Shown here one piece after another: positions 2,401-60,940 of a stretch of DNA of 64,000 nucleotides (position 1 is the first letter of the stretch; each line of letters starts with the position of its first letter). The notes under the pieces were generated by a model. That model had not been told where the DNA came from and did not search any database. It worked only from the letters and a program-made list of their open reading frames with translations. This DNA comes from Brachypterus glaber (Eukaryota; Arthropoda; Insecta; Coleoptera; Kateretidae). The position numbers and the translations under genes were made by a program. The stretch covers positions 71,560,095 through 71,624,094 of the forward strand of contig OY294044.1 in assembly GCA_958510825.1 (NCBI GenBank), given 5' to 3'.

Positions 2401-2668
2401 AGCCACACAAAAAAAGCTCAGGATTTTTGTCGGATACTATTGTATTTGTATGTATTTTTAGGCGCTGAGTCCGAATTTGAGGTCAAAATAGCACCTCATG
2501 TGATTATTTTTGGAGATAACCTAAAAAAATATTTTCGAGTATAAAAATACCACTTATTGAGGTTATGACCAAAATTTACCAGATAAGGTGCTATTTTGAA
2601 CTCAAATTCTGGGTCAGGAATAGGAATACAATGGTCTTCGAAAAAGTTCTTGACTTTTTTGTGTGTAA
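2401..2668. repeat. TIR hairpin element, AGCCACACAAAAAAAG ends
   Basis: Starts AGCCACACAAAAAAAG and ends with a near reverse complement (CTTTTTTGTGTGTA). Inner arms GAGTCCGAATTTGAGGTC and GAACTCAAATTCTGGGTC also pair. A close relative forms the centre of the foldback at 56091-57569. The left boundary of the 1600-bp duplication (2451) cuts through this element, so the second copy at 4051 lacks the left end. Confidence 0.65.
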
Positions 2669-4050
2669 TTTTGGAATAGTAGTTTTTCTTTATGCAACGT
2701 ACTAAAAAACCAATTTTATGATTATTTCTGGAAAAAACCGGATAAGCCGGTCATCTGGTAAACTATAAGCTGAAATTTTGCTCAAAGAAACAATATTAAC
2801 TACATTAATTTGAATTAAAAAATTTGCTGTACAATTTTCTCTGTGTGCAGCACTGTATTTTTCCGTTCTTTATGCAGGGTTTTAGAATTATGGCATACTT
2901 TGCCAGCATACTTTAAGAGTGTGCCTCTTTTATATAAAAACTTCATTGATAAAAGCTTCGCCTACGATATTATGTAATTGTGTATAATGCACTTCAAAGG
3001 AAAAACTATTTTCCTTAGTTAGATGTGCATTTTTTATACAACACAAACCCTTATACATTTTAAAAATATTCTTGCATAAAAAAATACTAAAAGTATAATA
3101 ATATTGCATGTTTTATTCATAAAAATTAAATATTATTATTTAGTAAGAAGTTGGAGGATGCTTTATTTTATTCAAAATTGTTTTTCCATTCCTACTTTTA
3201 AAAAGTTGTTTAAATAGATAAAGTTAAGCGTCCCCGCTAATGGGATGGTAGAAGAATCATTTACAAAATAGGAAATATAATCATACGTTGATAGAAAATC
3301 CCTTATGTAACTATAAAGGCCTATATACGGTGTTTTTGCAAAAGTTTCAACAATTTTAACATAAAAAATATAAAAAAAAGTTCCCATAAACATAAACATT
3401 CCCCCTTTCGTCTAAGACTTTCTTTCATGCGGAGAACTATACTTATAATTTACATTTAAATACACTGCCCAGTAAAAGAGATTTCCCATTTTAAACCTCC
3501 GCGCGTAAAATAGATTTTTTATTATTAGATTTACTTTTAGCAACCTTAAAAATATAACAGTTTTCACGAAAACTACCCCCCGCCTCTTAAGGGTGCAGTT
3601 AGAACTTTTTTATTATCTTTTTTTTATAATCAGATTCACTTTCAGCAACATCAAAAACCCCAATATACCAATTTTCTTAAAAACTACCCCCCACCCCTCA
3701 GGGGCGGATTTAGAATTTTTTTGTTATAAGATTCACTTTCAGCAACCTCGAAAACCCCAATATACTAGTTTTCACGAAAACTACCCCCACCCCTCAGGGG
3801 GTGAAATTAGAAAAAAAATATTCAGATTCATATTCGTCAACCCCAAAACCCCTATATACCAATTTTGACGAAAATATTGAAAATGTTTAAAAATATTTAC
3901 CCCCTAATCCCTCTTGGGTGGAGTTAGAAAAATTTTATTATCAGATTCAATTTCAGCAACCTGAAAAACCCCTATAAAGCAATTTTTAAATTAAAAAAAA
4001 TATATATATGTATATATATATATATAGATATAAATATATATATTACCCCA
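2451..4050. repeat. 1600-bp tandem duplication, unit 1
   Basis: This unit is repeated immediately downstream (4051-5650) with exactly 1600-bp spacing. By eye the only difference is in the GATAAGCCGGTCATC stretch near 2750 (G, against T in unit 2). It contains most of the hairpin element at 2401-2668, a 500-bp unique-looking part, the element starting CTGCCCAGTAAAAGAG at 3465, its minisatellite, and a TA-rich tail. No gene is seen; the 75- and 91-residue frames in both units are AT-rich or minisatellite translations. Confidence 0.9.
3465..4050 (+). repeat. minisatellite-bearing element, copy 1 (3' truncated)
   Basis: Begins CTGCCCAGTAAAAGAG, then ATTTCCCATTTTAAAC, then about four diverged 95-120-bp units. 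Each unit contains a CAGATTCACTTTCAGCAACC-like box, AAAACCCCAATATACCA, CGAAAACTACCCCC and a CCCCTCAGGGGG hairpin. A TA-rich run closes it. Copies: 5065 onward (+), 6370-6813 (-) and 6900-7908 (-). No transposase is visible, so this is a non-autonomous element of unknown class. Confidence 0.7.
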
Positions 4051-5650
4051 TGTATTTTTAGGCGCTGAGTCCGAATTTGAGGTCAAAATAGCACCTCATG
4101 TGATTATTTTTGGAGATAACCTAAAAAAATATTTTCGAGTATAAAAATACCACTTATTGAGGTTATGACCAAAATTTACCAGATAAGGTGCTATTTTGAA
4201 CTCAAATTCTGGGTCAGGAATAGGAATACAATGGTCTTCGAAAAAGTTCTTGACTTTTTTGTGTGTAATTTTGGAATAGTAGTTTTTCTTTATGCAACGT
4301 ACTAAAAAACCAATTTTATGATTATTTCTGGAAAAAACCGGATAAGCCGTTCATCTGGTAAACTATAAGCTGAAATTTTGCTCAAAGAAACAATATTAAC
4401 TACATTAATTTGAATTAAAAAATTTGCTGTACAATTTTCTCTGTGTGCAGCACTGTATTTTTCCGTTCTTTATGCAGGGTTTTAGAATTATGGCATACTT
4501 TGCCAGCATACTTTAAGAGTGTGCCTCTTTTATATAAAAACTTCATTGATAAAAGCTTCGCCTACGATATTATGTAATTGTGTATAATGCACTTCAAAGG
4601 AAAAACTATTTTCCTTAGTTAGATGTGCATTTTTTATACAACACAAACCCTTATACATTTTAAAAATATTCTTGCATAAAAAAATACTAAAAGTATAATA
4701 ATATTGCATGTTTTATTCATAAAAATTAAATATTATTATTTAGTAAGAAGTTGGAGGATGCTTTATTTTATTCAAAATTGTTTTTCCATTCCTACTTTTA
4801 AAAAGTTGTTTAAATAGATAAAGTTAAGCGTCCCCGCTAATGGGATGGTAGAAGAATCATTTACAAAATAGGAAATATAATCATACGTTGATAGAAAATC
4901 CCTTATGTAACTATAAAGGCCTATATACGGTGTTTTTGCAAAAGTTTCAACAATTTTAACATAAAAAATATAAAAAAAAGTTCCCATAAACATAAACATT
5001 CCCCCTTTCGTCTAAGACTTTCTTTCATGCGGAGAACTATACTTATAATTTACATTTAAATACACTGCCCAGTAAAAGAGATTTCCCATTTTAAACCTCC
5101 GCGCGTAAAATAGATTTTTTATTATTAGATTTACTTTTAGCAACCTTAAAAATATAACAGTTTTCACGAAAACTACCCCCCGCCTCTTAAGGGTGCAGTT
5201 AGAACTTTTTTATTATCTTTTTTTTATAATCAGATTCACTTTCAGCAACATCAAAAACCCCAATATACCAATTTTCTTAAAAACTACCCCCCACCCCTCA
5301 GGGGCGGATTTAGAATTTTTTTGTTATAAGATTCACTTTCAGCAACCTCGAAAACCCCAATATACTAGTTTTCACGAAAACTACCCCCACCCCTCAGGGG
5401 GTGAAATTAGAAAAAAAATATTCAGATTCATATTCGTCAACCCCAAAACCCCTATATACCAATTTTGACGAAAATATTGAAAATGTTTAAAAATATTTAC
5501 CCCCTAATCCCTCTTGGGTGGAGTTAGAAAAATTTTATTATCAGATTCAATTTCAGCAACCTGAAAAACCCCTATAAAGCAATTTTTAAATTAAAAAAAA
5601 TATATATATGTATATATATATATATAGATATAAATATATATATTACCCCA
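4051..5650. repeat. 1600-bp tandem duplication, unit 2
   Basis: Second unit of the direct duplication, nearly identical to 2451-4050. It ends at the same TATTACCCCA as unit 1. Only here does the sequence continue into TTGCCCCCCTTGCCGCACCCC, the natural continuation of the minisatellite element, so unit 2 keeps the original right flank and unit 1 keeps the original left flank. The near identity means either a very recent duplication or an assembly artefact. Confidence 0.9.
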
Positions 5651-11868: not shown

Positions 11869-12057
11869 ATGAGACCCCCATTGTCACCCCCTGCAGCTAA
11901 CGCTTTTATGGAATATTTTGAGAAAAAAGCTATTAAATCATTTCCACTAAAACCATAAATTTGGAGCAGATACGTAGACGATGTCTATGCTTTTTGGCCA
12001 CATAGTATGGAAAGCCTTCAAGGTTGTCTAAATCACCTTAATGGAGCTCTCTACAAC
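11869..12057 (+). pseudogene. Penelope-like element reverse transcriptase fragment
   Basis: The + strand reads ANAFMEYFEKKAIKSFPLK, a TAA stop at 11956, then SRYVDDVYAFWPHS with the RT catalytic box YVDD at 11971-11982. The order LSP..AN.FMEYFE..ALKSF followed by RYVDD is characteristic of Penelope-like elements. Only about 60 residues around the palm survive; the frame ends at 12055-12057 where the inverted repeat of the 12041-16821 structure begins. It is oriented opposite to the endonuclease remnant to its left. Confidence 0.8.
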
Positions 12058-12454
12058 TAGAATTATGAAACAAAAGACGTCTACCCTATCTCTATCTCAT
12101 TTCTGATACACTTTCCAGCCAACCAAATAAATACTGTATTTGTTTTTCATACAACAAATACAGTATTTATTTGGTTGGCCGGAAAGTGTAGCACTGAACG
12201 GCACGAACGAACATAGCTAATGTGAATCTGTAGAATAAGATAATTCTACTAAAATTTAGATGGCGCCAGTAATTTCTTTAATAAAAATAATATAGTTACA
12301 CTTTTCGCCCGGCCAAGTAAATATTGTATTTGTTCAACAAAGAACCAATACAGAATTTGTTTGGTTGGGTGGAAGTGGGAGTGTATGTATGTCTTCTATC
12401 CTCTTTGGGTAGAACTTTTGTCCCTGTCTAATCTAAAGGGAGAAATCGCCATTC
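12041..12454. repeat. left arm of long inverted repeat
   Basis: About 410 bp that recur as the reverse complement at 16407-16821 with high similarity. The outer end is TAATGGAGCTCTCTACAACT. The arm contains two further palindromes: one built on CCAACCAAATAAATACTG with its complement 30 bp later (12117-12179), and one on AATATTGTATTTGTT/AATACAGAATTTGTT (12310-12370). The hairpin-within-TIR design is typical of foldback-like elements. Confidence 0.8.
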
Positions 12455-16406: not shown

Positions 16407-16821
16407 AATGGCGATTTCTCCCGTTAGATAAGACAGGGACTAAAGTTCTACCCAAAAAGGATAGAAGACATACATACACTCCCACTTCCACCCAACCAAA
16501 CAAATTCTGTATTTGTTCTTTGTTGAACAAATACAATATTTACTTGGCCGGGAAAAAAAGTGTAACAATTTAATTTTTATTAAAGAAATTACTGGCGCCA
16601 TTTAAATTTTAGTAGAATTATCTTATTCTACAGATTCACATTAGCTATGTTCGTTCGTGCCACTCAGTGCTACACTTTCCGGCCAACCAAATAAATACTG
16701 TATTTGTTGTATGAAAAACAAATACAGTATTTATTTGGTTGGCTGGTAAGTGTATCACAAATGAGATAGAGATAGGGTAGACGTCTTTTGTTTCATAATT
16801 CTAGTTGTAGAGAGATCCATT
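16407..16821. repeat. right arm of long inverted repeat
   Basis: Reverse complement of 12041-12454, including both nested palindromes, and ending GTTGTAGAGAGATCCATTA. The two arms share small indels only. Distance between outer ends is about 4.78 kb. No target duplication could be confirmed outside the arms. Confidence 0.8.
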
Positions 16822-17221
16822 AGTTATTGGGATCCCGCACACAAATGCAAATTTAGGCGGATCACCCATCTGTATTATTGTAAACTTTTTGTAAATATGA
16901 AAATATGAAAGTAATCCCAAATATTATTTATTAAAATTCTTAAAATATCTTCGGTTTATTAAGAATTTATTAAAACTATGTACAGAAATATTTTTTAATA
17001 AAATAAGAAAATTAAAAACAATAATACACACGAAGGAAGGAATGCAGACAAAATACAGGGCCGGCTGTTTCTGTTTTTGGTGTTCATTAGTTTAAAAATG
17101 ATTAGTGTTTTTAGTTTTTATGGCCAAAACTACTTCTTTGCATGACTTGCATTTTGTAGTCTCGTTCCTCGTCATTTAAAGCAAAGTCGTTCTTTCGGCC
17201 TTGGCACACAAAACATATCGA

Positions 17222-25690: not shown

Positions 25691-25694
25691 ATTA
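25691..25694. other. target-site duplication, left (ATTA)
   Basis: ATTA directly precedes the 5' LTR and recurs directly after the 3' LTR at 33513-33516. A 4-bp duplication is usual for Ty3/Gypsy-type integration. Confidence 0.8.
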
Positions 25695-26810
25695 TGTAAC
25701 AGAGTGGTCACCCTGTATATATTGAGTATTTATATTTTTATTTGTATGGTTATTGAACGTGACATAGCATTGTTCTTAACGGGCGGTTTGCTGTTTATTT
25801 TTACAGATGCTAATATTATTAGTTTTTGGGAAGCTTGCATTTTGTGTAATTGAGGCGTTTACATAAAAAGGGTGTACATTTTTATTAGATTAATTAATTG
25901 GTTATTTCGGTTTTCTTAATTAATAAATATGGGAATATCTTTAATGATGTTGTTTTAGATACTGGCAATAGTTAGGGATTGTTTGTAAAAATGGTTTTTT
26001 CTACTTCGAAGCAATGTCATGAAAATCAATATCAATCAATATGTAGAAATAGTTTTTTTAATCATTTCGCTTAATTAAATTTAAATTCATTTTCAGTAAT
26101 TTAAAGTAATTCAGTTTATTTTGATCGAAAACTCCTCAGATATTTTTTGTTTATAGTTTTATGACTGGTATATCAGCATCTTTGGGAAGGGACGTTTTGC
26201 CTGTGTTTAGTTATGGTCAAAAATGGGATTCGAAAATATGTAGTCGTCTAGTTAAGTTGGGCCTTAGGGAAATTAGAATTAACGTAATATGTGAAAATTT
26301 AAAGTAAAATTTAGAGTCGCGCGTATAGAAATATCTGAAGGGTAAAGATGCTATTTATTCATAATTTTTTTCATTTCAAATTAAAATATTTTGTTGTTTT
26401 TTATTTGTTTTCAACTTTTCATTTTTCTTTGAATTAAATTCTTTTCATTGTTGTTTAATCCTTTTGTTTTATTGGCAAGATATATTTTAATTAATTTAAA
26501 ATATATTTGAAGTTTTTTACCTTTCACATTTCTATATAAAGTTAGTGATATTGGAAGACATCGAAGAAACATCTAAGAAAGTCAGATAAGTATTAAATAG
26601 TAATTAGATTCTTATATTAACATTTGTTATCATATGATATATGATATTGTGATAATATTATGTAGTATTATTACTGGTGGCACGCTACCCAAATAGCAAC
26701 TATACAGCTATTTGCATTTGATACGCCTCCAAATAATAGTGTGTGGTTCTAAATTAATGTCTTAGATAATTAATATTTTTGGCTATAATTGGGACCAGCA
26801 CCCTATTACA
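25695..26810 (+). repeat. 5' LTR (1116 bp)
   Basis: Starts TGTAACAGAGTGGTCACC and ends GGGACCAGCACCCTATTACA, with terminal inverted TGTAA/TTACA. It carries TATATAAA at 26533-26540, a plausible promoter. Compared with the 3' LTR it has an extra 7 bp near 26619 and three base differences. Confidence 0.95.
26533..26540 (+). promoter_or_regulatory. TATA box of the 5' LTR
   Basis: TATATAAA in the context TTTCTATATAAAGTTAGTG, about 280 bp before the LTR end and 560 bp before the Gag start. The same box is in the 3' LTR at 33242-33249. Position fits a U3/R boundary; the start site itself is not identifiable by eye. Confidence 0.5.
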
Positions 26811-26813
26811 AAT

Positions 26814-26832
26814 TGGTGGACAGCGGAAACGC
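26814..26832 (+). other. primer-binding-site candidate
   Basis: TGGTGGACAGCGGAAAC begins four bases after the LTR end. A TGG start (complement of the tRNA CCA tail) at this distance is the normal layout. I could not assign the tRNA. Confidence 0.5.
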
Positions 26833-27102
26833 GTTAAATAACGCTGGGTTTTATTTTTTTTACGTTTTTATAGTTTTTTTTTTGCGTTTTAATGAGGAAT
26901 TTTCAGTTTTCACATATTTCTGTTTTTTTGGTAACCGATTCGTTAGTTTTACGTAAAAGTACGAACAGGTATAAGTGTTTTTTGTGTGGATTTTAAAGTT
27001 AAGTGTTTTAGCGATTTCCTTGCGGTAATTTTTAATTTTTGTTTTAGACTATAGATATTTGTTTTTCCCCAAGGTAAATTTATTTAATTATTTTATAACA
27101 AA

Positions 27103-27918
27103 ATGTGTTGCGAATGTTGCAAAAAGATGACTCAAGTGAAAAAGAGCAATTTTTCCTTTGACTTAGTAGAAAATTTTTCAGGTGGTCCCGATTTTTCATT
27201 ATTTTTTACTGCCATAGATATTGTTGCTAAAAATAATAGTTTGACGGAGCAAGAGACAATAGATTTAATTATTTTGAAATTAAGAGGTCAGGCATTGGTT
27301 TATTTTCACGCTTTACGAGAAAATGAACGCCCCACTAATTTGGTGGATTTAAAACAGTTTTTTAGTAGAATTTATACGAAAAAGGTTAATTTTTTTGATA
27401 TTAAAAAGGAAATGTCCACTTGTATTCGTTTAAATGATGAACCGTTAGCAAATTTTGTAATTCGTTTAAAAATATTGGCAAATAAAATGTTTTCAGATAA
27501 ATTGTGTCCTGAAGATCAAATAGTTTATAATCGTCTTATCTTAGATCAGTTTTTTGAAGGTATAGATACAGTTTTAGCTAATGAAATACTTAGTAGCGAT
27601 AAATTTTTTAGCGTCGATGAAGCATTGCAAGCTGGGGAGAATATACTAGAAATTAGAACTAGATTAATTAAACAAACTTTTCACGATCAATTTATAGAAT
27701 TTCAGGATAATCTCAAAATATCTGTTTTACACAATGAAATAAATAATAATAATAATAATGAATTTTGCGGTAATAATAGTAATAATGATAGAAACGGTTA
27801 TAATATTAATAGTAATTATAATTTTAAACCTAGGTATAATAAAACACGCAATAGGTACAATAATTTTTATGATGGGCGGAAATTTCAAAGGTACAATCCG
27901 GTAGGGTACCGAAATTAG
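27103..27918 (+). CDS. gag: Gag-like capsid protein of the LTR element
   Basis: 271 residues from the first ATG after a 290-bp leader. Structural protein expected to form the particle that packages element RNA. Residues 55-130 match the retrotransposon Gag capsid pattern: KLRGQALVYFHAL (59-71), NLVDLKQFF (79-87), LANFVIRLKILANKM (115-129). The N-terminus MCCECCKKM is unusually Cys-rich. There is no CCHC zinc knuckle; the C-terminal part (213-271) is rich in Asn with scattered Arg/Lys, a likely nucleic-acid-binding tail, as in some insect Gypsy-type Gags. The stop TAG at 27916-27918 lies inside the start of the macrodomain frame, so a +1 shift there would give a Gag-macrodomain fusion. Not confused with a host gene, because it sits between LTRs and is intronless. 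Confidence 0.85.
   Translation: MCCECCKKMTQVKKSNFSFDLVENFSGGPDFSLFFTAIDIVAKNNSLTEQETIDLIILKLRGQALVYFHALRENERPTNLVDLKQFFSRIYTKKVNFFDIKKEMSTCIRLNDEPLANFVIRLKILANKMFSDKLCPEDQIVYNRLILDQFFEGIDTVLANEILSSDKFFSVDEALQAGENILEIRTRLIKQTFHDQFIEFQDNLKISVLHNEINNNNNNEFCGNNSNNDRNGYNINSNYNFKPRYNKTRNRYNNFYDGRKFQRYNPVGYRN
27905..27918 (+). promoter_or_regulatory. Gag/macrodomain frame overlap, possible +1 recoding site
   Basis: The macrodomain frame opens after its own TAG at 27902-27904 and the Gag frame closes at TAG 27916-27918. A shift from Gag to macrodomain must occur within GGGTACCGAAATTAG. Moving one base forward at AAT-T before the TAG would read ATT-AGA. No classical -1 slippery heptamer fits, because the needed shift is +1. 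A single-base indel in this copy is the alternative. Confidence 0.4.
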
Positions 27919-28561
27919 AGATCAGGATAATTACGAATATTTTAAATCAATTAATTACAAAGCGGACGATTACAAAATTAAGGAAAAGTACCAAGACATA
28001 TTTTTGTGCCCGGAAAATGTTTCTCTCGCTCACTGTGTTTCAGAAGATTTAGATATGAATAAAGGAATTGCAACTCAATTTATGTCAAAATTTGGTAAAT
28101 TAGAACAATTAAGAAATCAAAAAGTTCGTACAGGCGGTTTGGCAGTTTTGAAGGATAATGATAGGTTTATTTATTATTTGGTAACGAAAAAGTATTCATA
28201 CGAAAAGCTGACATATGAAATTTTGTGGAAGACACTTTTAAAGCTAAGAAATCACGTAATTAAAAACAATGTTAAATATTTGGGTTTGCCAAGAATAGGA
28301 TGTGGTTTAGATCAGCTTAATTGGGTTAAAGTAAAGGATATGATTTGTTATATTTTTAAAGACGTTGATGTTAATGTTACGATTTTCTCATATCCGCTTA
28401 GAGCAAGATTATCAGTTTATAGTAATTTAAATAGCCAACAAGTACATTTTGAGTCGGATTATTATGGGACTAATACCGAAAACGAATCACATATAATTAC
28501 GCACAATCCGGAAGCTATCGGTACATTTTCAGGTAGAGATGAATATTATATTAGGTACTGA
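27905..28561 (+). CDS. TARG1/OARD1-like macrodomain (ADP-ribose hydrolase) in an LTR element
   Basis: Frame open from 27905 and overlapping the Gag stop by 14 bp in +1 phase. It has no ATG before 28055; a TTG is at 28004. The domain starts near 27971 (YKIKEKYQDIFLCPENV), upstream of either start, which favours expression as a Gag fusion. Landmarks: SLAHCVSEDLDMNKGIA, VTKKYSYEKLTYE and LPRIGCGLDQLNW, which match the TARG1/OARD1 class of macrodomains. That class removes ADP-ribose esters from Asp/Glu and related adducts, using a Lys and an Asp. Here these are Lys at 28187-28189 and Asp at 28310-28312, 41 residues apart as in human TARG1 (K84, D125). A roughly 45-residue tail rich in Asn/Glu/Tyr follows the fold. 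Domain length (about 147) fits the family (about 150). Base composition is as AT-rich as gag. Substrate in the element's life cycle is unknown. Confidence 0.85.
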   Translation, partial: GTEIRDQDNYEYFKSINYKADDYKIKEKYQDIFLCPENVSLAHCVSEDLDMNKGIATQFMSKFGKLEQLRNQKVRTGGLAVLKDNDRFIYYLVTKKYSYEKLTYEILWKTLLKLRNHVIKNNVKYLGLPRIGCGLDQLNWVKVKDMICYIFKDVDVNVTIFSYPLRARLSVYSNLNSQQVHFESDYYGTNTENESHIITHNPEAIGTFSGRDEYYIRY

Positions 28562-31500
28562 CTGTTGTTTTAAAAGGTGAAATTTAATTATAATAACTAG
28601 ACCGAAGTTTTTGCATATGAGTAGAAACGTAGTGTTGTATTATTACGATATTTTTTTTAGTAAAAAAGATCAGAAAATTGTTGAAAATATGTGTTTCCTT
28701 GTAAGTTATTTTCGAAAATATTATTTGTTTGAATTTATTGTCTTTATTTTAAAGTTTTGTTTATACAAACTAGTATTTAGATATTTTTTTACCCCAAAAA
28801 TCCTAAGCGTCACTTATTTTAGGCCCTAACTGCCCACATGTAAAAACATGTGCTGTGAACCTTTTTGTGCAGGTCAAGAATTTGTACATTTAAACCCTTT
28901 AATTCAATATTTTGTGTAAAGTATTTTTAAAATTTATAATGAAATTTTAAGATAATAGACGTATTAATATTTTACAAATGAGAAAAGCATAATTTCATGT
29001 TAAAAATAGTTTTTATCGTCATTAAGCTTAAAAAAAGCTTATTTTAACGTTTAGCGTAAATATTATTGAATAATTTTTGAAAGTTAATTTTCTGATCTAT
29101 TTTTTGTGTATAATTGTCATTAAGCTACAACTCGCTAATATTTTTTTTAGATAAAGTAGTAATCTACTAAAAAGACCATACGTTTTTTTTAAATATATAT
29201 ATATATTTTTTTTTTCATTGAAGTGGCAAAGTTTTGTTTAATTTTGATAAACCTAATTATATTGGATTTGTTTTAAAAAGTTTATGTGCAGAGAGTAGTT
29301 TTGAAATACAGTTTTAATATTTGCAGTTATGAAGAAATTTAGTTATAACAAGGCTTAAAATTGGCATAAGTTGCAGTTAAATATATTTTCCAAGAAATTA
29401 TTAGTTTTTAACGTTTGTTTTATTTTTAAAATATAAATAAATGTTTTTTTGAAGTTATTTTTGCAGTTATCGATAGTACTCAAATGTTAAGTAATAATTA
29501 TTGCATATGTTATGTTTTATGTCTGTATGTTAAGGTGGCCACCGAGAATAAATGTGCGTATGATTGGTTGAATAAAAGTCTATGAATGCTAATGCAAAAT
29601 TTTGTTTTGTTTTGGGCATTGAAATGCGTAATATCTTGTTTTTTTAAAAAATTGTCGTTTTTTTTGAAGATACTATCAATAACTGAATATTTTTTTTTTA
29701 AAGTTTTAAGTATTTTCAAGTTTTTGATTGATAAAGTACAATCAGTTTTTTAAGAAAAGTCTAAATGAATGTTATAGAAATTAAAATTTATCTTTTGCAC
29801 ATAATTTTGTTAATTTTTGATTTTTTACGAGTTTTTTTTTATATAAAATTACATTTTTTCAGTATCGTAATAAGAATAAGAAGCGCAATAAGAAACGTTT
29901 ACTTTGGTTATAATAAATTTTGAGTATATGAGTTCTTGGGTTAGCGAGTTATTTTTTTTTTTTTTAAGTAATATTGAGTTACGTTTTTTGAAAAGTTTGT
30001 AATCTGCATAAATTTCAGTTAGAAAAATAGGAATTGATTTAATTTTTAAGGTTTGAAGCTGAAACCTCTGTTTAAAACAGACTAATTTATCAATGAAAGT
30101 ATTTTGCAATAATATTTGAACCTAGAAGTCTAAATGAAAGATTGTAGCTATATTTTTTTAAACTGATTAACAACCATAAGATATGGACTAATCAAGTATA
30201 GCTTATATCATTTGTAGTGTTACAAACACGTTTTCTTTTGAAAAGTTTTGAGTGGAAAATATCGTAATAAATATTTGTTAATTTTTCAGAATGATGTATT
30301 AATGTAATAATTTGATTAAGTTTTATTGGTTTATGTAGTAGGAAGTATTTAAAGTTTTTAGAGATTTCGAAATGAATTATAAAAAGGTATAGTTATAAAA
30401 GAGGTTTTATTGAGTTTATAGGTATATTTTTATACATTTGCTTCAAAAGTTAAGCAAATTAAGAATTTAAAATGAGTTTTTGTTCATAATTTACAGTCGA
30501 AATAAAATGTTTAGCAGAAGCTAAAAGTGTTAGTATGGTATACCATAAAAGTATTGTTGTAATTAAAAAGTATATACCGGTATAAAAAGTAAAATAAAAG
30601 ATACATTTACCTATGAGTAGATAAATAAGAGAAATAAGGTAAAATAAGTGAAATAAAATAATTTGATAAATAAATTAGTAAATATTGGGTATAATAAGTA
30701 AAAGAATAGGTACATATACATATGGGTAGATAAATAAGAGAAGTAAGGTAAAATAAGGAAAATAAAATAAGTTAATAAATAAATTAGTAAATATTGAGTA
30801 TAATAAATAAACTAATGAGTAAATAATTAGGAAATAAAAAATGAGTAAATAATGGAACTAGTATTTTTGGTTATCGTTACGTGATCATTATACCAATTGA
30901 AACAAATTAAGACTAGTTACAGGAACGCTATAGCTACGTTCTAATTGCAATATGGAATAAAAATAAGGGTAATAATTACTATCTTGTTACATGTTTGTAA
31001 TGCACATTTTAAATCATTTTTGTAATATAACCCTGGTAATCATTTTGTTGAGTAGTTGCGTAATTAAGCAACTTTGTTATTTCTATTTAGTAAAAAAGTT
31101 AAAAGTAATGTTTTTGGTAGAAAATATAATTCAGTTAATAATCAGAATATTTTTAATTGTTTTAAGACCGTAAAGTAATATAATTAGTGAGATCTACGTA
31201 ATAACAACTCATGAATGGCAACGGTTACAATTATTTAGGTAAAATTCACAAAGAATACTAGTTGAGAGATATGTAAATATATATGAGAATAAAGAATAAT
31301 TATGTTAAAGATTAATTAGTTAATTAATTAATTAGAGTACTAGTACATTAGTTATATTTAATAAGAGGTACCTCACGAACACAAACACGAATAGAAACTT
31401 GAATCAAATTTTAGCTGAAGTTTTTAATGAAGTTTTTTGACATTTTTTGAAGTTTTGTTTAGAATAGAGTTTTATAAGCAGTTAAAATAAAGAAATCAAA

Positions 31501-32388
31501 TGTTTGTAATTACGATTCAATTATTAATGAAACTTTAGGCAAAAATTACGAATAGTAATTTAGTTTTTTTTTGTGTGTATACATATGTGTTTTTTATTAT
31601 GAGAAAAGTTTTGCGTTTATTATGGAATTAATTAAATTTTAGGTATAAATAGTAATGCTTTGTTTCTAATGTTTTTTATGAGTTTTAGGTTTGGTTTGTC
31701 AATAATTATTCTGTGTTGAGAAAAGATATTTGAATAACGAAAAGTTTTTGTCAAGTTAAGGTTGTTGGTTGTATCCAAACTTCAGGAGTTTGTGGAAGTG
31801 CTGACAATGTGATCAGAAGAAGTTAGTAGTTAAACTTTAAGCTTGCTGAAGTTACCTTAAAGGTTGGGTAAAGTTAAAAGTTTTTCTAGGATTTTGAAGT
31901 TATTATGGAGTTGTACTGAAGTTACACTGATACACCGATGCTTGACAGGCACTTGATATTTTCCCGTCTTCTCGTGAAAACTGGGGAAATAAAATTTAGT
32001 TTGAACGTATTAATTTTTTTTTGTTACAGTTCCGTTCCTTTTTCTTTTGTTTTGGTTGTTTTCCATATTCATTCCGTAGATGATGGTAACGCTAATAGAG
32101 AAGAATAATATTAATCACTTTAGATTTTTGTGCTACTTGGGATTGAATTGAGTAGGTTCTATAGTAGTTCATTAATTTGAATATGGGTTTTTATTATAAG
32201 AGACTGATTGAGTAGGTCTCAAGAAGAATTAGCGTTGGTTTGTCTGAGTGCCAGAGTTAGGAGTGAAGATTATAGAAGAAAGAAGAAGATGATGTCAATT
32301 TCAGAAGATTTATATTGCCATTTTGTTTTGTATAAATAGTATCTAAATCAATTAATTTAAAGTTTTGTTCAAATTAATCTGATTTTTT
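28562..32388 (+). other. non-coding internal region of the LTR element
   Basis: 3.8 kb of AT-rich sequence where pol would normally lie. No frame reaches 90 residues and none resembles protease, RT, RNase H or integrase. It contains a tandem pair with 109-bp spacing at about 30610-30820 (GTAGATAAATAAGAGAA in each), a TTAATTAATTAATTAG run at 31315, and a GC-richer patch with a short stem (ATTTTCCC/GGGGAAAT) at 31951-31995. It may serve as packaging or spacer RNA. Confidence 0.7.
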
Positions 32389-32403
32389 AAAAGGGGGGAG
32401 TAT
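32389..32403 (+). other. polypurine tract
   Basis: AAAAGGGGGGAGTAT directly before the TG of the 3' LTR; the expected primer site for plus-strand synthesis. Confidence 0.8.
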
Positions 32404-33512
32404 TGTAACAGAGTGGTCACCCTGTATATATTGAGTATTTATATTTTTATTTGTATGGTTATTGAACGTGACATAGCATTGTTCTTAACGGGCGGTTTGC
32501 TGTTTATTTTTACAGATGCTAATATTATTAGTTTTTGGGAAGCTTGCATTTTGTGTAATTGAGGCGTTTACATAAAAAGGGTGTACATTTTTATTAGATT
32601 AATTAATTGGTTATTTCGGTTTTCTTAATTAATAAATATGGGAATATCTTTAATGATGTTGTTTTAGATACTGGCAATAGTTAGGGATTGTTTGTAAAAA
32701 TGGTTTTTTCTACTTCGAAGCAATGTCATGAAAATCAATATCAATCAATATGTAGAAGTAGTTTTTTTAATCATTTCGCTTAATTAAATTTAAATTCATT
32801 TTCAGTAATTTAAAGTAATTCAGTTTATTTTGATCGAAAACTCCTCAGATATTTTTTGTTTATAGTTTTATGACTGGTATATCAGCATCTTTGGGAAGGG
32901 ACGTTTTGCCTGTGTTTAGTTATGGTCAAAAATGGGATTCGAAAATATGTAGTCGTCTAGTTAAGTTGGGCCTTAGGGAAATTAGAATTAACGTAATATG
33001 TGAAAATTTAAAGTAAAATTTAGAGTCGCGCGTATAGAAATATCTGAAGGGTAAAGATGCTATTTATTCATAATTTTTTTCATTTCAAATTAAAATATTT
33101 TGTTGTTTTTTATTTGTTTTTAACTTTTCATTTTTCTTTGAATTAAATTCTTTTCATTGTTGTTTAATCCTTTTGTTTTATTGGCAAGATATATTTTAAT
33201 TAATTTAAAATATATTTGAAGTTTTTTACCTTTCACATTTCTATATAAAGTTAGTGATATTGGAAGACATAGAAGAAACATCTAAGAAAGTCAGATAAGT
33301 ATTAAATAGTAATTAGATTCTTATATTGTTATCATATGATATATGATATTGTGATAATATTATGTAGTATTATTACTGGTGGCACGCTACCCAAATAGCA
33401 ACTATACAGCTATTTGCATTTGATACGCCTCCAAATAATAGTGTGTGGTTCTAAATTAATGTCTTAGATAATTAATATTTTTGGCTATAATTGGGACCAG
33501 CACCCTATTACA
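32404..33512 (+). repeat. 3' LTR (1109 bp)
   Basis: Same ends and TATA box (33242-33249) as the 5' LTR, three substitutions apart, lacking 7 bp near 33328. Followed by ATTA at 33513-33516. Confidence 0.95.
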
Positions 33513-34231
33513 ATTAATAATTATAATTGAAACGCTGCAAGGTGTTAATATAGTTACCATATCTGGAAGTTTAGCGTGTGGACTACATACCTGAAATAAA
33601 ATAAAATAATATTAAAATTTAATACAAATTATGGTTAAAAATTTGTGGATTCTTTAAAAATATTTTCGTTTTATAAAGTGGTACTTGTGGTTTTACAATT
33701 GTCGAGTGAGAAAAAAAATACTGCTGCCAACAAAATAATATTTCCACCTACAAGCATAGATTCATTAAGCAAAAACAAAAAAAAAATAAAAAAAAAAATT
33801 GAAAGAATCAAAAATTTTTTTGTTTCTCAAAAAAAAATTTTTAATTTTCTTTTCTCGTAAAACGAAAAACAAATTAAAAAAATCCCCAATCCTATTTTTA
33901 CGAAAAACAATCCCAGCCTAGAACTTTGGATAATCAACCTGTGTTTCAAATTTGAAGTTTTTAACCCAAAGCGTACTTGAGTTATCGTGGTCACAAATTT
34001 CCCGGACACACAGTTCGACAGACCGACAGAGATTTTTTTTTACGGAAATCATATTTCAAGAAACGACAAAAAAGGCAATAAATTTTTTTCGAATTTTTTT
34101 TACTAAGACAAGTAAAAGTATTTTCAAAGAAAGAACCAACTAACCAACCAAACGCGCCTTCGCCAAAATTGCAAATAATATTTTAATATTGTTAAAACAA
34201 TTTACAATTTTATCGAAAGCGCACCGTTTAA
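33513..34231. other. gene-free stretch with a repeat scrap
   Basis: Starts with the right-hand ATTA duplication. 33890-34160 is a diverged piece of the family seen at 5690-5830 and 7070-7180 (AACAATCCCAGCCTAGAACT, then GTACTTGAGTTATCGTGG and a GACAGACCGACAGA run). A-rich frames at 33645-34143 are not genes. Confidence 0.45.
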
Positions 34232-37760: not shown

Positions 37761-38508
37761 TTTCGTACGACCTAGTGTACACGAAATAAATAAAAATGCA
37801 TGTTCACTATATATACTCGTTACGATATTTTTCTATCGGACGAGTACATAGTGCATATTTGAATGAAATGACAACTATGCACACTCATTTATCCAAACGA
37901 TTACACATAGCTTTCATTTTGACAAAAGTCATTTGACGTTTATAAAATTTTGAAATGTCAAAAGTAAACACAGTTAATTCTTTAAAATATACATTTTTAA
38001 ACAGTCTAGACTGTAGGTCGAACGAAAAATGTTGTTTGCAACTCATTTTCGACAAGTCCCTACTCGTTACGAAAACTACTATTTCGTACGACTTAGTGTA
38101 CACGAAATAAAGAAAAATGCATGTTCACTATATATTTTCGTTAGGATATTTTTCTATCGCACGAATACATAGTGCATATTTGAATGAAATGTCAACTATA
38201 CACACTCGTTTATCCAAACGATTACACATAGCTTTCATTTTGACAAAAATCATTTGACGTTTATAAAATTTTGAAATGTCAAAATTAAACACAGGTAATT
38301 ATTTCAAATATACATTTTATAGAGTCTAGACTGTAGATCGAACGAAAAATGTTATTCGCAACTCGTTTGCGACAAGTCCTTAGTGCACTCGAATGATTTT
38401 TTGACTTAGCTTCGCGTCGTCAAAAAAACTTCATTCTAGTGCACTAAAACTACTATTTCGTACGACCTAGTGTACACGAAATAAAGAAAAATGCATGTTC
38501 ACTATATA

Positions 38509-39172
38509 TCGTCGGCTTACAAGTAAAAGGCACTAAGTCACTTTTTTGCAAAAATGGGATTTTTAATTTTTGATGATCTATGTACAGGTAAACCGAACTA
38601 AATTCTAGGTGGACTGCCAAGAGAGTTACCCACTATACATTGGGAGGCATTGGCGTAGTGGCTAGCGCGTATGCATAGCAAGTCTACTATCGTGAGTTCG
38701 ATTCTCACTGGCGCCGATTTGCCTTTTTCAGTTAATTAATAATTGAAATTTGGCGAAGGGGATAAGTGAAACGGACACTCCCTAGAAACTGGTTCGAAAG
38801 TCAGTATAAGCCGGTGGTTCCCTCTACTACTAGCCCACACAAGTCCTGGACTTAGGGGATGCTTAATTAAGTAGAATAGTATGAGGTTAAACAAACAATT
38901 TAATTTAATTTAATTTAATACAAAACGCATCAGTTTCATTTTGAATAAAATTTTATCTGGCAATATGCACTAAGTCACTTAGTGCACTTAGTGCGTTTTA
39001 CTTGTAGATTATTTCAAATTTTTCTGCACTAAGCGACTTAGTGTTTGTTTGGCGAAACGTGCATTTTTGTAACAATTATTACAAAAATTAAAAAAGAACA
39101 GTGAAAGTTAAATTTGTCAATATCTCAAAACCATGTTTTTGGACTTAGTGCTCTTTACTTGTAAGCCGACGA
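38509..39172. mobile_element. MITE with TCGTCGGCTTACAAGTAAA ends, nested
   Basis: Left TCGTCGGCTTACAAGTAAAA; right TTTACTTGTAAGCCGACGA. Comparison with unit 2 of the host array shows a TA (or ATAT) duplication at the insertion point, as in Tc1/mariner-type insertions. The interior repeats CACTAAGTCACTTAGTGCAC. It is itself interrupted by a SINE at 38640-38905. Confidence 0.75.
38640..38928 (+). mobile_element. tRNA-derived SINE, copy 1 (inside the MITE)
   Basis: Pol III A box TGGCGTAGTGG at 38651-38661 and B box AGTTCGATTCT at 38695-38705 with flanking GTG/CAC stem. The body has GGACACTCCCTAGAAACTGG, AAGCCGGTGGTTCCCTCTAC and GTCCTGGACTTAG; the tail is TTAAGTAGAATAGT then an AATTT repeat. Related copies at 44878-45110 (-) and 47464-47712 (+). 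Confidence 0.8.
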
Positions 39173-39528
39173 TATTTTCGTTAGGATATTTTTTTATCGC
39201 ACGAGTACATAGTGCATATTTGAATGAAATGTCAACTATGCACACTTATTTATCCAAACGATTACACATAGCTTTCCTTTTGACAAAAATCATTTGACGT
39301 TTATAAAATTTTGAAATGTCAAAATTAAACACAGGTAATTATTTAAAACATACATTTTATAGAGTGTAGACTGTAGATCGAACGAAAAATGTTGTTCGCA
39401 ACTCGTTTTGCGACAAGTCCTTACTGCACTCGAATGATTTTTTGACTTCGCTTCGCGTCGTCAAAAAAACTTCATTCTTGTGCACTAAGAACTAAAGTCA
39501 CTTACTCGTTACGAAAACTACTATTTCT

Positions 39529-54790: not shown

Positions 54791-56090
54791 GGTGAATCTG
54801 ATAAAGGGGACTGTACCCTACTATAACTATAATATACTAATGCTATCAAATGTTACAGTAATGTTTTCTACAAAATTTTAGTATTAATAAACAAAGGTTG
54901 TGAGGGATTCTAAATAGGCCAGCACATTGTGTTGTGGCAATATGATAATATATATACACAAATACGATATTGTAGTTATAATATTTCAAGTAGGCTACAA
55001 AACATCAAATTTCGCGGGATAAATAAAAAATGCGTATTTACAAAATTTGTACAGTAAGTAACATTTTCTGTGTGTACCGGTTTCCGAGATGAGTATCTGT
55101 AGTTTATTTTAAATGATGCATTAATGTCGTGGGCGAAGTTGTCTTGGTTAGGTTTAAACACAAAAGTCGATATTTTACTTTAAAAATATTAGGTATCATT
55201 AAAATTAAGTATTCTTTTTTACTTTTAAAAAGATATTTATATTTCTATAACTAATGTATTTAATTATTACCTTAAAACTTAATAATTGAATATAGTTGTT
55301 GATTAAAGTGTTTTTTTATCAAGAATTTACCTATTTTTTTTTTCAAATTATAATTAATTTTAATTATAATTAAATAGCAAACTTTTTAGATGTGCCTTCA
55401 GTTTTGGTATTTATTAGTTTTTAAGTTATAACTTATAACTAACTAAAATGTATCCGAAATAGCGGTCGCAAAGTTTGACAATTTTAATCGTTCTAAGCTT
55501 TTAGGAAATATGGGAAACATTCATTCAAGGCAGGTATTATAAATAAAGCAGGTATTTCAACTTTTCTAAAGAATATTTCAATGTAAGTACTTGGATCTCT
55601 CGCTATAAATTCTAAAGATATCATCAGTGCATAGCCAGCTTATAAGGTTTTTTTAGTTGCTATTTATGTTTGAAAAAGATTTATTATTAAAAATTCAAAT
55701 ATTTATATGAAGAGGTTGAAAAATACGTTAGGATACCCAATAATTCAAAAAGATATTAAATTTGAAAAAAAATACGCTAATTTATTATTTGACGTATGTA
55801 AAGACTGGTTGGATCCTAAAACACTATTTTTAAACATTTGGTCAGGGCCGTAGGTATGATGATGGGGAGCCTCCCCCGCCTATATTAAAATAAAAAAGTT
55901 GCATATTCACGAAAAGGGGTAATCTTTTTTTTAACTTAACTTTTTTATCAAAGAAAAAAGTTGCATATTTCATGGATTCAAATACAAAAGTTGCATATTC
56001 ACGAAATGATGAGACCAGTTTAAAATAGGTTTAAAAATGGGAATTTTGGTCAAAACTTCTTTTGAATAATGGTTTATTTCATGATGCAAA
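54791..56090. other. gene-free AT-rich stretch
   Basis: The box AAAAGTTGCATATTCACGAAA occurs twice (55898, 55987) with a third variant between. Nothing else. Confidence 0.35.
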
Positions 56091-57569
56091 TACATCAATA
56101 ATACTGGTCGACAAATCTGAAGATTTCTCTAACTGAGATTCCAGACATAGGTTTATACTAATTTTGGGTCGCTGAATCCAAATCCGAAGGCCGTTTGTCT
56201 CCATCACCCTCAGATTTTTTTATATCATAAAAAAAGTTAAAGTTAGGAAAATCGATTTTGTGTAATTACAAGAAAATGCTTTGACTTATCACATTAAAAT
56301 TAAGTACGGTTAATAGTGGTAATATAAGTTATTTATTCCCCTACTTACCCAAAAATACAATTGTGTGTATATCAGAGGCGTGCGTTCTAAAGTGTTTCTG
56401 TAATATATTCCTCCAACAAAATTTATGTTTAAGAATTTTACAATTTCGATAAAAAATTATTATTTATTGATTAATTTTACGTAAAAAACATATTGGACCT
56501 TTTGATCAAAATTCAATAGTTTTCGAGAAAAATAGGTTTAAACATATCTCTGCAAGTTCCACTAAGAAAAAAACTGCTGCCAACAAGATAATACTTTCTC
56601 CTATAGGTCTAGGTTTATTAAAATAAAAATAAACATAAATAAATAAATTAAAAAAAATTAAAATTTTTATTTTCCGAACAAAGTCTATTTTTTCGTTTTA
56701 CGAAAAATAGATTGAAAAAAAAATAAAAAAAAGTTTTAACCCCATTTTACCCCCTTACCCCACCCCGATTTTTATAAAAAAAAAAATATCCCAGCCACAC
56801 AAAAAAAGGTCAATAGTTTTTTTCCTATGTATTTTGAGGCGCTGAATCCGAATTTGAGGTCAAAATGGCACATCACCTGGAAAACTAATTGGATAAGGTG
56901 CTATTTTGACTTCAAATTCGGATTCAGCGCCTCAAAATACATAGAAAAAAAAAAACTATTGACCTTTTTTTGTGTGGCTAGGATATTTTTTTTGATAAAA
57001 ATCGGGGTGGGGTAAGGGGGTAAAATGGGGTTAAAACTTTTTTTTAATTTTTTTTTTTCAATTTATTGTTCATTAAAACGAAAAAAGACACTTTTTCGGA
57101 AAAAAAAATTTTAATTTTTTTTTTTTATTTAATTTATTTATTTATTTTTATTTTAATAAACCTAGACCCATAGGAGAAAGTATTATCTTGTTAGCAGCAG
57201 TTTTCTTAGTGGAACTTGCAGAGATATGTTTAAACCTATTTTTCTCGAAAACTATTGACCTTTGATCAAAAGGTCCAATAGTTTTCGTTTGGAACGCACC
57301 CCTCTGACATACAAAGTAGGGGAATAAATAACTTATATTACCACTATTAACCGTACTAAATTTTAATGTGATAAGTCAAAGCATTTTCTTGTAATTACAC
57401 AAAATTAATTTTCCTAATTTTAACTTTTTTTATGATATCAAAAAATTTGAGGGTGATGGAGACAAACGGCCTTCGGATTTGGATTCATCGACCCAAAATT
57501 AGTATAAACCTATTTCTGGAATCTCAGTTAGAGAAATCTTCAGATTTGTCGACCAGTGTAATTGATGTA
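56091..57569. mobile_element. 1.48-kb foldback element
   Basis: Starts TACATCAATAATACTGGTCG and ends CGACCAGTGTAATTGATGTA. Arms of about 590-700 bp match along their length (for example ACAAATCTGAAGATTTCTC, GGCCGTTTGTCTCCATCACC, CATTAAAATTAAGTACGG, GGGGTAAAATGGGGTTAAAA in the right arm). The centre is a nested hairpin, 56791-56983, with ends AGCCACACAAAAAAAGGTCA and arms GGCGCTGAATCCGAATTTGA, akin to the element at 2401. No transposase; frames inside are spurious. Confidence 0.85.
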
Positions 57570-58980
57570 TAATTATTATACTTTTAAACTAATTTTGCAG
57601 ATAAAAATAATATTTTGCAAAAAAAAAATCTTTAAAAGGCATTTTTTAGCAAAAAAAAAATGAAAAAATTAAACTTAAAAAAAATAAAAAAAATAAAAAT
57701 GTGCACGCATGGTCGAATAGAGAGTTTTATGAGCTGTAAAATGATGTATTACACGACACCACACTCCTTTCAAAAAAAAAATCCTCCTTGCCCCCTGTCG
57801 CCATTGTGCCATTGCGCAAAGCATATCAAATATATACCAAAAAAAAAATTATTTGCGCTTTTTTATTTACGTATTACAAATTTCAAGTTAATATCTTAAG
57901 CAACCCAAAAGTTAAAGGGGGGGCGGACTTTTGATACGCTCTCTAGAAAATCTTGTATAACAAAACATGACTGACATGCTAAAATAAAAACAGAGAGATT
58001 CACTCGTATAGTTTGCCATACGGATCTAAAACAGTGAAATAAATCCCACAGAAAATTTAACTTGAAAATACTCTAGAAAAGATTTAAAATAAACTGATAG
58101 AAATGTTGTTGTTGCCAACCATATTTTGTAATATGTTATAATATAAATATGTTATACTATACAACAACCAGTTGTAGAATTAAGAGGTAAACAACATAAA
58201 ATTGTAATAAATACAACAACAAATGTTATCTTATATCATAGTTAATACTATATTATAGTACAATTTGTGGTTGGCGCATATATAACACTATATTGTTTAT
58301 TAATAATGCTATCACTGTAAATACTATTAATTAAAATATTTTTTTAGATTTTTTTTTAGTATGGGAACCTAGGTATTTCCGAATTTAATTTTGTGCCGCA
58401 TTCCTTTGACTGTTACAGATCCTTGTGTCAAAGTTTAATTATTGTACCCAAAACTCAATATTAGAACTTACTTAATTTAGTTCTCTATTAAGAGCTTTAA
58501 AGCAGTTAAAAACAAAATTAGAAACCTAACCTCATTGTTTTAAATGATGCTTATGAAACAAGTGTTTTGAACAATTAAAATATTATGCAAATTCTAAATT
58601 ATAAGTTGTTTAGCACTACGCGCTGTGAATACTATACTATTATATATAATAATATTAGAAAAAAAGTAAGAATTATTGGGTAAAAATAAATTTTGCTTAA
58701 CATTTTCATTTTAAAATTTCCTAGGGCCTGATAAAGGGTAAAAACATCACTCAAGTTTGATTTTCTCTAATGAATGATGGTGGTTTGGGTGAGGGGTGTC
58801 GTTTATTTATGGAAGACAGGGAGCGCAATTGAAGAGTGAAACTTTCATACGGCTAAACTCCATTTAATCAATTTCTCAGGGGGGACAAAAAATTTATTTA
58901 TTTTTTACGGACACAGAACTTGTAGATTTGTAATGTCATCCAAGCTAAATTATAGTTGTCCTTCCATCTTGCCAAGCTGC
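57570..58980. other. gene-free stretch
   Basis: 57715-57925 resembles the right arm of the element at 51997-52517. 58098-58285 has a weak inverted pair (TTGCCAACCATATTTTG / TACAATTTGTGGTTGGCG). No gene. Confidence 0.4.
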
Positions 58981-60806: not shown

Positions 60807-60940
60807 ATATAACTAAAAATTAGAAAACAAGATATTTACATAAATTTTCAAAAACTCATCATAGATTTTTAAAAGAAAGGTTTTGGAATTTTTGATAGTT
60901 TAAAGAACGTTTCCAAAACGCTTCTTTTAAAAACTTTTTT

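What the first reader, a model, noticed from the sequence alone, without database searches (positions are those of the whole stretch)
25695..33512. Young LTR retrotransposon whose only proteins are Gag and a TARG1-like macrodomain
Seen: intact LTR pair, 4-bp ATTA duplications, Gag frame, and directly behind it a macrodomain frame with the landmarks SLAHC, VTKK and PRIGCGLD. Known: TARG1/OARD1-type macrodomains remove ADP-ribose; some RNA viruses use macrodomains to counter host PARP signalling. Inferred: the element captured a host ADP-ribosyl hydrolase and carries it as part of its particle proteins, while pol is supplied by another element. I know of no standard Gypsy layout with this content, but I could not search for it.
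Basis: partly seen in the sequence, partly recalled or inferred. Interest (0 to 1): 0.93.

Follow-up and report, generated by a model that had tools for sequence, protein, structure and literature searches.

The report
Retrotransposon carrying an ADP-ribose eraser
A recently inserted, probably insect, jumping gene encodes a likely capsid protein and, right behind it, a predicted ADP-ribose-removing enzyme (TARG1/OARD1 type); the same enzyme turns up at three different places inside the polyproteins of other jumping genes, so such elements may have armed themselves more than once against a host signalling system.

Summary
Window 25695-33512 is a young LTR element: 1.1-kb LTRs differing by three substitutions and one 7-bp indel, TG...CA ends, ATTA duplications, a polypurine tract, a Gag-position frame, and a 218-codon frame holding a full TARG1/OARD1 macrodomain (PDB sequence match E 5e-37; model 0.9 A from TARG1; Lys84/Asp125 equivalents kept). 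No pol remnant was detected. 'Gag' rests on position and a sub-threshold PNMA match. Ten of eleven retroelement macrodomains lie beside insect host TARG1-like proteins in a tree. Best reading: a pol-less, probably trans-mobilised element laid out like the macro-before-protease kind, making Gag and, by +1 recoding, a Gag-macro fusion that removes ADP-ribose from element proteins or nucleic-acid ends. Function is inferred. Descent from any sampled pol-bearing family is not shown, and copies in the source genome could not be searched (tool unanswered 15 times).

The parts
25691..25694 (.). target-site duplication, left copy (ATTA)
   Evidence: sequence
25695..26810 (+). 5' LTR, TGTAACAG...CCTATTACA
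   Evidence: direct repeat and pairwise alignment
26814..26831 (+). possible primer binding site (TGG-starting stretch 3 nt inside the 5' LTR); tRNA not identified
   Evidence: sequence; inference from position
27103..27918 (+). Gag-position ORF, 271 aa, no CCHC knuckle seen, Asn-rich and basic C-terminus
   Evidence: PNMA sub-threshold match E 0.0059; no homologues
27905..27918 (+). 14-nt overlap of the two frames; a +1 shift must fall here if they are fused (first ATG of the macro frame is at 28055, behind the SLAHC motif)
   Evidence: six-frame translation; mechanism inferred
27905..28561 (+). macrodomain frame, 218 codons, TARG1/OARD1 type; Lys84 and Asp125 equivalents are codons 95 (28187-28189) and 136 (28310-28312)
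28397..28558 (+). C-terminal tail of the macro frame (54 residues), mostly low-confidence in the model, no protease DTG/DSG motif
28562..32403 (+). 3.84 kb AT-rich (24% GC) stretch where pol would be; no detected pol remnant; 109-bp tandem repeat at 30579-30811
32389..32400 (+). polypurine tract AAAAGGGGGGAG
   Evidence: sequence
32404..33512 (+). 3' LTR
33513..33516 (.). target-site duplication, right copy (ATTA)
   Evidence: sequence

Best explanation
A recently transposed, pol-less LTR retrotransposon that makes two proteins: Gag and, by a +1 shift or other recoding in a 14-nt overlap, a Gag-macrodomain fusion. The macrodomain is a TARG1-type ADP-ribosyl hydrolase of insect-host kind. Its layout parallels Ty3/gypsy polyproteins that carry the same enzyme before the protease; the simplest history is loss of protease-RT-RNaseH-integrase from a Gag-macro-pol ancestor, with mobilisation in trans, but no sampled family is its demonstrated parent. 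Most likely mode of action: the enzyme travels in the particle at a low ratio to Gag and removes mono-ADP-ribose that host PARPs place on element proteins or on RNA/cDNA ends, a carried accessory enzyme in the way of retroviral dUTPase (comparison recalled). Shown: anatomy, homology, catalytic residues, parallels in other elements. Inferred: recoding, packaging, trans-mobilisation, substrate, benefit.
For: Young LTR pair and duplications. TARG1 identity by sequence and fold. Lys/Asp dyad invariant in 40 of 40 aligned proteins, window included, and found in 13 of 13 retroelement or suspected-retroelement domains inspected. Of 47 long proteins matching the macrodomain (377 candidates), 8 carry an RT label, 7 of them with RT, RNase H and integrase zinc domains. 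The domain precedes protease in P0145, P0151, P0156 and P0166 (the last cut at its N-terminus). Against chimaeric assembly: P0151 stands for 55 contigs, P0145 for 9 member sequences, P0150 lies on a 97-Mb record. Within the P0145 group macro identity (55-67%) is like that of protease (56-73%), below RT (81-93%), with open frame and dyad kept. 10 of 11 retroelement domains lie with insect long TARG1-like proteins (91/96, just short of a starred branch). TARG1 is reported to act on Glu/Asp-linked, phosphate-end and thymidine-linked ADP-ribose (passages of PMC9411070).
Against: No other copy of this family was seen. Gag is weakly identified. The P0145 group is a clade of its own without the window domain (100/100). 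The frame change could be an inactivating indel. P0144, P0156, P0160 and P0166 each rest on one member sequence and one contig, so a chimaera is not excluded for each of these alone. No expression, activity or dN/dS evidence; the dyad shows competence, not activity. Unrooted label counts cannot tell capture from host to element apart from the reverse; the direction is inferred from the wide spread of cellular TARG1.
Confidence: 0.6

Rival explanations
1. One-off transduction: this element or a small family picked up a host TARG1 transcript next to Gag, with no function in the element; it persists only because the copy is young.
For: No other copy seen; no close retroelement sister of the window domain; young insertion.
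Against: Seven Ty3 polyproteins carry the same kind of domain in frame between or beside their own domains, in one group diverging without loss of the dyad. The window domain is at most 53% identical to any of the 70 other tree rows, so it is not a fresh copy of any host gene sampled; the host's own gene was not seen.
Confidence: 0.2
2. The frame change between Gag and macro is an inactivating indel in this copy; the working family makes a single Gag-macro(-pol) polyprotein. (Not exclusive of the best explanation for the family.)
For: I recognised no known slippery site; only one copy could be read.
Against: Both frames are otherwise open and the change lies within 14 nt of the Gag stop; predicted proteins P0145, P0151 and P0156 also begin 15-30 residues before the macrodomain without Gag, as expected if Gag and macro-pol are separate frames, but their contigs could not be read.
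Confidence: 0.25
3. The macrodomain was acquired from a virus rather than from the host.
For: Macro-domain ORFs exist in fish endogenous retroviruses (PMC4977317 passage); a scan of viral contigs found 125 stretches encoding relatives of the macrodomain alignment.
Against: Alphavirus and coronavirus macrodomains among the 50 listed Foldseek hits have 11-17% identity and E 3e-7 to 1.2e-6, against 47% and 1.9e-18 for TARG1. The two viral-contig loci read (of 80 kept) match at 41% and their ORF lists show no retroelement gene by eye; no family scan was run on them. The trees place 10 of 11 retroelement domains beside insect host proteins, but viral-contig domains were not put in the trees.
Confidence: 0.05

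Closest known systems
Ty3/gypsy polyproteins with the macrodomain before the protease (database proteins P0145, P0151, P0156, P0166; Rhamnusium bicolor fragment P0046)
   Same: TARG1-type macrodomain at the head of the predicted pol protein; Lys/Asp dyad kept
   Different: They carry protease, RT, RNase H and integrase domains; the window element has none detected; the domain tree sets them apart
Ty3/gypsy polyproteins with the macrodomain between RNase H and integrase (P0144; P0150 of Rhynchophorus ferrugineus) or after integrase (P0160; perhaps the Pyrocoelia pectoralis fragment P0083)
   Same: Same enzyme class inside an LTR-retroelement polyprotein
   Different: Other slots in pol; RT 33-44% identical among P0144, P0150, P0160 and the P0145 group
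Fish epsilon-like endogenous retroviruses with macro-domain ORFs (Basta et al. 2009 as cited in one passage of PMC4977317)
   Same: LTR retroelements with an accessory macrodomain
   Different: Vertebrate retroviruses; described as additional ORFs; macrodomain class not stated in the passage
TARG1/OARD1 (C6orf130) and long insect TARG1-like proteins such as Tribolium castaneum LOC661444 (P0125)
   Same: Domain fold and dyad; by eye some beetle proteins and several retroelement domains share a short aromatic segment upstream
   Different: Cellular genes without LTRs or Gag as far as the records name them
Other enzymes carried by retroelements: cytosine methyltransferases (title of PMC5890265), DEDDy and GDSL ORFs of bdelloid LTR elements (passages of PMC5408684), SF1 helicases (PMC6338049), retroviral dUTPase (recalled)
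   Same: Accessory enzyme in a retroelement
   Different: None of these is an ADP-ribosyl hydrolase

Membership tests
LTR retrotransposon | paired LTRs with TG...CA ends | tested here: met
LTR retrotransposon | target-site duplication | tested here: met
   ATTA both sides
LTR retrotransposon | PPT before the 3' LTR and PBS after the 5' LTR | tested here: inconclusive
   PPT clear; TGG stretch at the PBS position, no tRNA matched to it
LTR retrotransposon | Gag | tested here: inconclusive
   position and open frame; PNMA E 0.0059 under cut-off; no homologues
Ty3/gypsy (Metaviridae) | Ty3-type RT and pol order | tested here: not met
   no pol detected: tblastn of 7 macro-bearing pols against the window at E up to 1 gave only macrodomain matches; so the element is not filed as Ty3/gypsy
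TARG1/OARD1 macrodomain | TARG1-type sequence and fold | tested here: met
   Pfam Macro itself below cut-off
TARG1/OARD1 macrodomain | catalytic Lys84 and Asp125 | tested here: met
   codons 95 and 136; roles from passages of PMC5087735 and PMC9411070
TARG1/OARD1 macrodomain | ADP-ribosyl hydrolase activity | not testable with these tools
   needs an assay
Macro-before-protease Ty3 elements (P0145 type) | macrodomain follows the Gag position and heads the next frame | tested here: met
   window; P0145 type: where Gag itself was not seen
Macro-before-protease Ty3 elements (P0145 type) | macrodomain groups with that family | tested here: not met
   the five P0145-type rows form a starred clade (100/100) without the window

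The most novel reading that the evidence does not exclude
Insect Ty3-type retrotransposons have repeatedly taken a TARG1-type ADP-ribosyl hydrolase from their hosts, in at least three polyprotein slots, as a counter-defence against PARP-type ADP-ribosylation of their proteins or nucleic-acid ends, and the domain is useful enough to be kept by a pol-less element that otherwise keeps only Gag. This would make ADP-ribosylation a general, unrecognised restriction on insect retroelements.
Probability: 0.3. Interest if true: 0.88.

Novelty: new variant of a known kind. Interest (0 to 1): 0.72.

Why it matters
An open, dyad-keeping, host-type eraser in several Ty3-type lineages would point to ADP-ribosylation as a force acting on retroelements too, and gives a testable enzyme, two residues to inactivate, and natural with/without comparisons. 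Seven searches of the held full-text library aimed at this (listings, not all texts opened) showed macro-domain ORFs in fish retroviruses but no paper on macrodomains in Ty3/gypsy elements.

Tried and rejected
Viral origin of the macrodomain: not favoured, though viral-contig domains were not put in a tree. Assembly chimaera for the macro-bearing pols as a set: not favoured, not excluded for the four that rest on one contig each. Pol remnants in the element: none found. Gag homologues: none; Gag model unusable. A second copy of LTR, interior, Gag or macro inside the window: none. Scans of viral contigs with the window macrodomain, with P0151 and with an LTR string gave nothing.

Single versus repeated capture: unsettled. 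Holding ten retroelement domains as one clade was not rejected on the domain alone (p-AU 0.092; nine without P0160, 0.262) and was rejected when up to 34 upstream residues were added (p-AU 0.022; there the ten rows include the unclassified fragment P0041 and leave out P0166). The second tree has long branches and weak deep forks. The pairing of the window domain with P0041 (80/78) was flagged there as a possible long-branch join.

Rows dropped or unseen: one search listed 120 of 280 hits; one search listed 20 of 65 papers and one search listed 12 of 121; the tree used 71 hand-chosen segments of 170 (P0042 failed my length rule; P0086 was not chosen); one search used 39 rows, P0042 left out; one search kept 80 of 125 loci, of which L001 and L002 were read. 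Domain borders were set by hand around the Pfam matches.

Full report
Observation. The element spans 25695-33512. Its LTRs (25695-26810, 32404-33512) align with three substitutions and one 7-bp indel, begin TGTAACAG, end CCTATTACA, and are bounded by ATTA on both sides. A polypurine tract AAAAGGGGGGAG lies just before the 3' LTR, and a TGG-starting stretch 3 nt inside the 5' LTR is a possible primer site. The only frames of 120 aa or more inside are 27103-27918 (271 aa) and the one within 27905-28561 (218 codons stop to stop, +1 relative to the first). In 500 order-2 Markov simulations the longest forward open frame was 124 codons.

The macrodomain. The frame matches human OARD1/TARG1 over 128 residues at E 5.3e-37. 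The AlphaFold2 model has 140 of 218 residues at pLDDT 90 or more, covering most of the domain, and a disordered tail. Its best Foldseek hits are TARG1 structures at 0.9 A rmsd and 47% identity, ahead of DarG (23%) and of alphavirus and coronavirus macrodomains (11-17%). Pfam Macro gives 19.4 bits against a cut-off of 22. Lys84 and Asp125, reported as the residues for binding and hydrolysis in TARG1 (passages of PMC5087735, and PMC9411070), correspond to codons 95 and 136 and are invariant in 40 of 40 aligned proteins. The first ATG of the frame (28055) lies behind the SLAHC motif, so a start there would cut into the domain; fusion to Gag by a +1 shift within the 14-nt overlap is the likeliest way to an intact domain. 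That is inference; I recognised no known slippery site.

The Gag-position frame. It has no database homologue at E 0.001 among 350 candidates, its best PDB match is E 0.1 to an unrelated protein, and PNMA matches at E 0.0059 below the curated cut-off. Its single-sequence model is unusable.

No pol. tblastn of seven macro-bearing Ty3 polyproteins against the window at E up to 1 returned only the macrodomain. The 3.84 kb behind the macro frame is 24% GC with a 109-bp tandem repeat and no frame of 120 aa or more. With nearly identical LTRs the copy probably moved in this form, enzymes supplied in trans; loss of pol after insertion is less likely but not excluded.

Relatives. A first search gave 280 macrodomain proteins among 421 candidates, 120 listed; where a source names them they are mostly OARD1, TARG1 or macro proteins of insects, molluscs, rotifers and others. 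A second search, set to long proteins, gave 47 among 377 candidates, of which 8 carry an RT label. Seven of the 8 are Ty3/gypsy-like with RT, RNase H and integrase zinc domains. In P0145, P0151, P0156 and P0166 the macrodomain precedes the protease; Pfam Macro itself does not report it there at E 0.1, but the window domain does, at 127, 120, 116 and 83 bits. In P0144 and P0150 it lies between RNase H and integrase, in P0160 behind integrase. The eighth, P0167, has an RT match below its cut-off and another architecture. Fragments may add to this: P0083 (Pyrocoelia pectoralis, 11 member sequences) begins with what looks by eye like an integrase tail (Pfam Integrase_p58_C only at E 0.55), and P0046 (Rhamnusium bicolor) shares the FMP-x-A-x-EWN linker of the P0145 group. 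RT domains of P0144, P0150, P0160 and the P0145 group are 33-44% identical to one another, so four distinct RT lineages carry the enzyme. The Lys and Asp are found in 13 of 13 domains inspected: the window, the eight RT proteins, P0083, P0046, P0086 and the unclassified P0041. Within the P0145 group the macrodomain (55-67% identity) diverges like the protease (56-73%) and faster than RT (81-93%).

Origin. In a 71-row tree 10 of 11 retroelement domains lie on the side of long insect TARG1-like proteins (split 91/96, not starred), the eleventh being P0167. The retroelement label needs seven changes on that tree; starred branches force at least two. Such counts cannot tell gain from loss; that the flow was host to element is inferred from the wide spread of cellular TARG1. 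P0160 groups with aphid host proteins (96/91) on the domain alone but not in the extended tree. Holding ten retroelement domains as one clade gives p-AU 0.092 on the domain and 0.022 with the upstream segment. Kinship with insect host proteins is supported; repeated capture is suggested, helped by three different slots, but one capture followed by exchange between elements remains possible.

How it works. TARG1 is reported to remove ADP-ribose from acidic residues, from phosphate ends of nucleic acids and, like DarG, from thymidine (passages of PMC9411070). I think it most likely that the element-borne enzyme, carried in the particle through fusion to Gag, removes ADP-ribose put on element proteins or on RNA/cDNA ends by host PARPs. 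The slots before protease and between RNase H and integrase are those used by dUTPase in some retroviruses (recalled), which suits a carried accessory enzyme. None of this is tested.

Known or new. Macro-domain ORFs are on record in fish epsilon-like endogenous retroviruses (PMC4977317, one passage, citing Basta et al. 2009). Four papers on accessory domains or captured genes show no macrodomain by term search: PMC6338049 (parts 1 and 2 of 4 read, and term search; its one 'macro' is 'macrophage'), PMC7264820 (passages), PMC5408684 (passages), PMC5890265 (term search, no term found). Of ten library searches, seven bear on the question; some searches sought TARG1 residues, PARP and retrotransposons, and the bdelloid paper. 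None listed a paper on macrodomains in Ty3/gypsy elements, but not all listed texts were opened, one search listed 20 of 65, and subscription papers and preprints are not held, so priority cannot be claimed.

Limits. The source genome could not be searched, so copy number, conservation in the family, selection and a pol-bearing partner are open. The host species is not identified; an insect host is inferred from the macrodomain's neighbours.

Noticed in passing
P0121-P0143, P0152, P0153, P0158-P0165 (e.g. P0125, Tribolium castaneum LOC661444): Long insect proteins, most with no RT and named only as uncharacterized, filaggrin-like and the like, with an intact TARG1-like macrodomain, by eye low-complexity N-terminal parts and in some (P0121, P0122, P0123) a second macrodomain match; they are the nearest non-element relatives of the retroelement domains.
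   Followed up: partly
window 12039-12453 and 16407-16822: Inverted arms of about 415 bp, 95-97% complementary, about 4 kb apart, with palindromes inside: looks like a foldback or TIR element; no frame of 120 aa or more outside the arms.
   Followed up: no
window 56090-56346 and 57314-57570: Inverted arms of 257 bp, 96% complementary, 967 nt apart.
   Followed up: no
window 2450-5643 and 60935-63276: Repeat copies at 99-100% identity at spacings of 1600 and 1279 bp, apparently tandem duplications.
   Followed up: no
P0041 (JGI metagenome fragment, 201 aa): A macrodomain protein that pairs with the window domain in the tree (80/78) and ends in a stretch that by eye resembles the protease-RT linker of Ty3 elements; no Pfam match; its contig could not be read.
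   Followed up: partly
P0167 (JGI metagenome, 885 aa): A protein with a sub-threshold RT match and a C-terminal TARG1-like macrodomain, outside the insect side of the tree.
   Followed up: partly
L002 3858-4298: A macrodomain gene (41% identity to the query alignment's first sequence) among genes that by eye look like replication genes, on a viral contig.
   Followed up: no
window 38643-38716: A tRNA-Ala(agc) call by ARAGORN amid 230-bp repeats at 37811-39408; gene or tRNA-derived repeat not decided.
   Followed up: no
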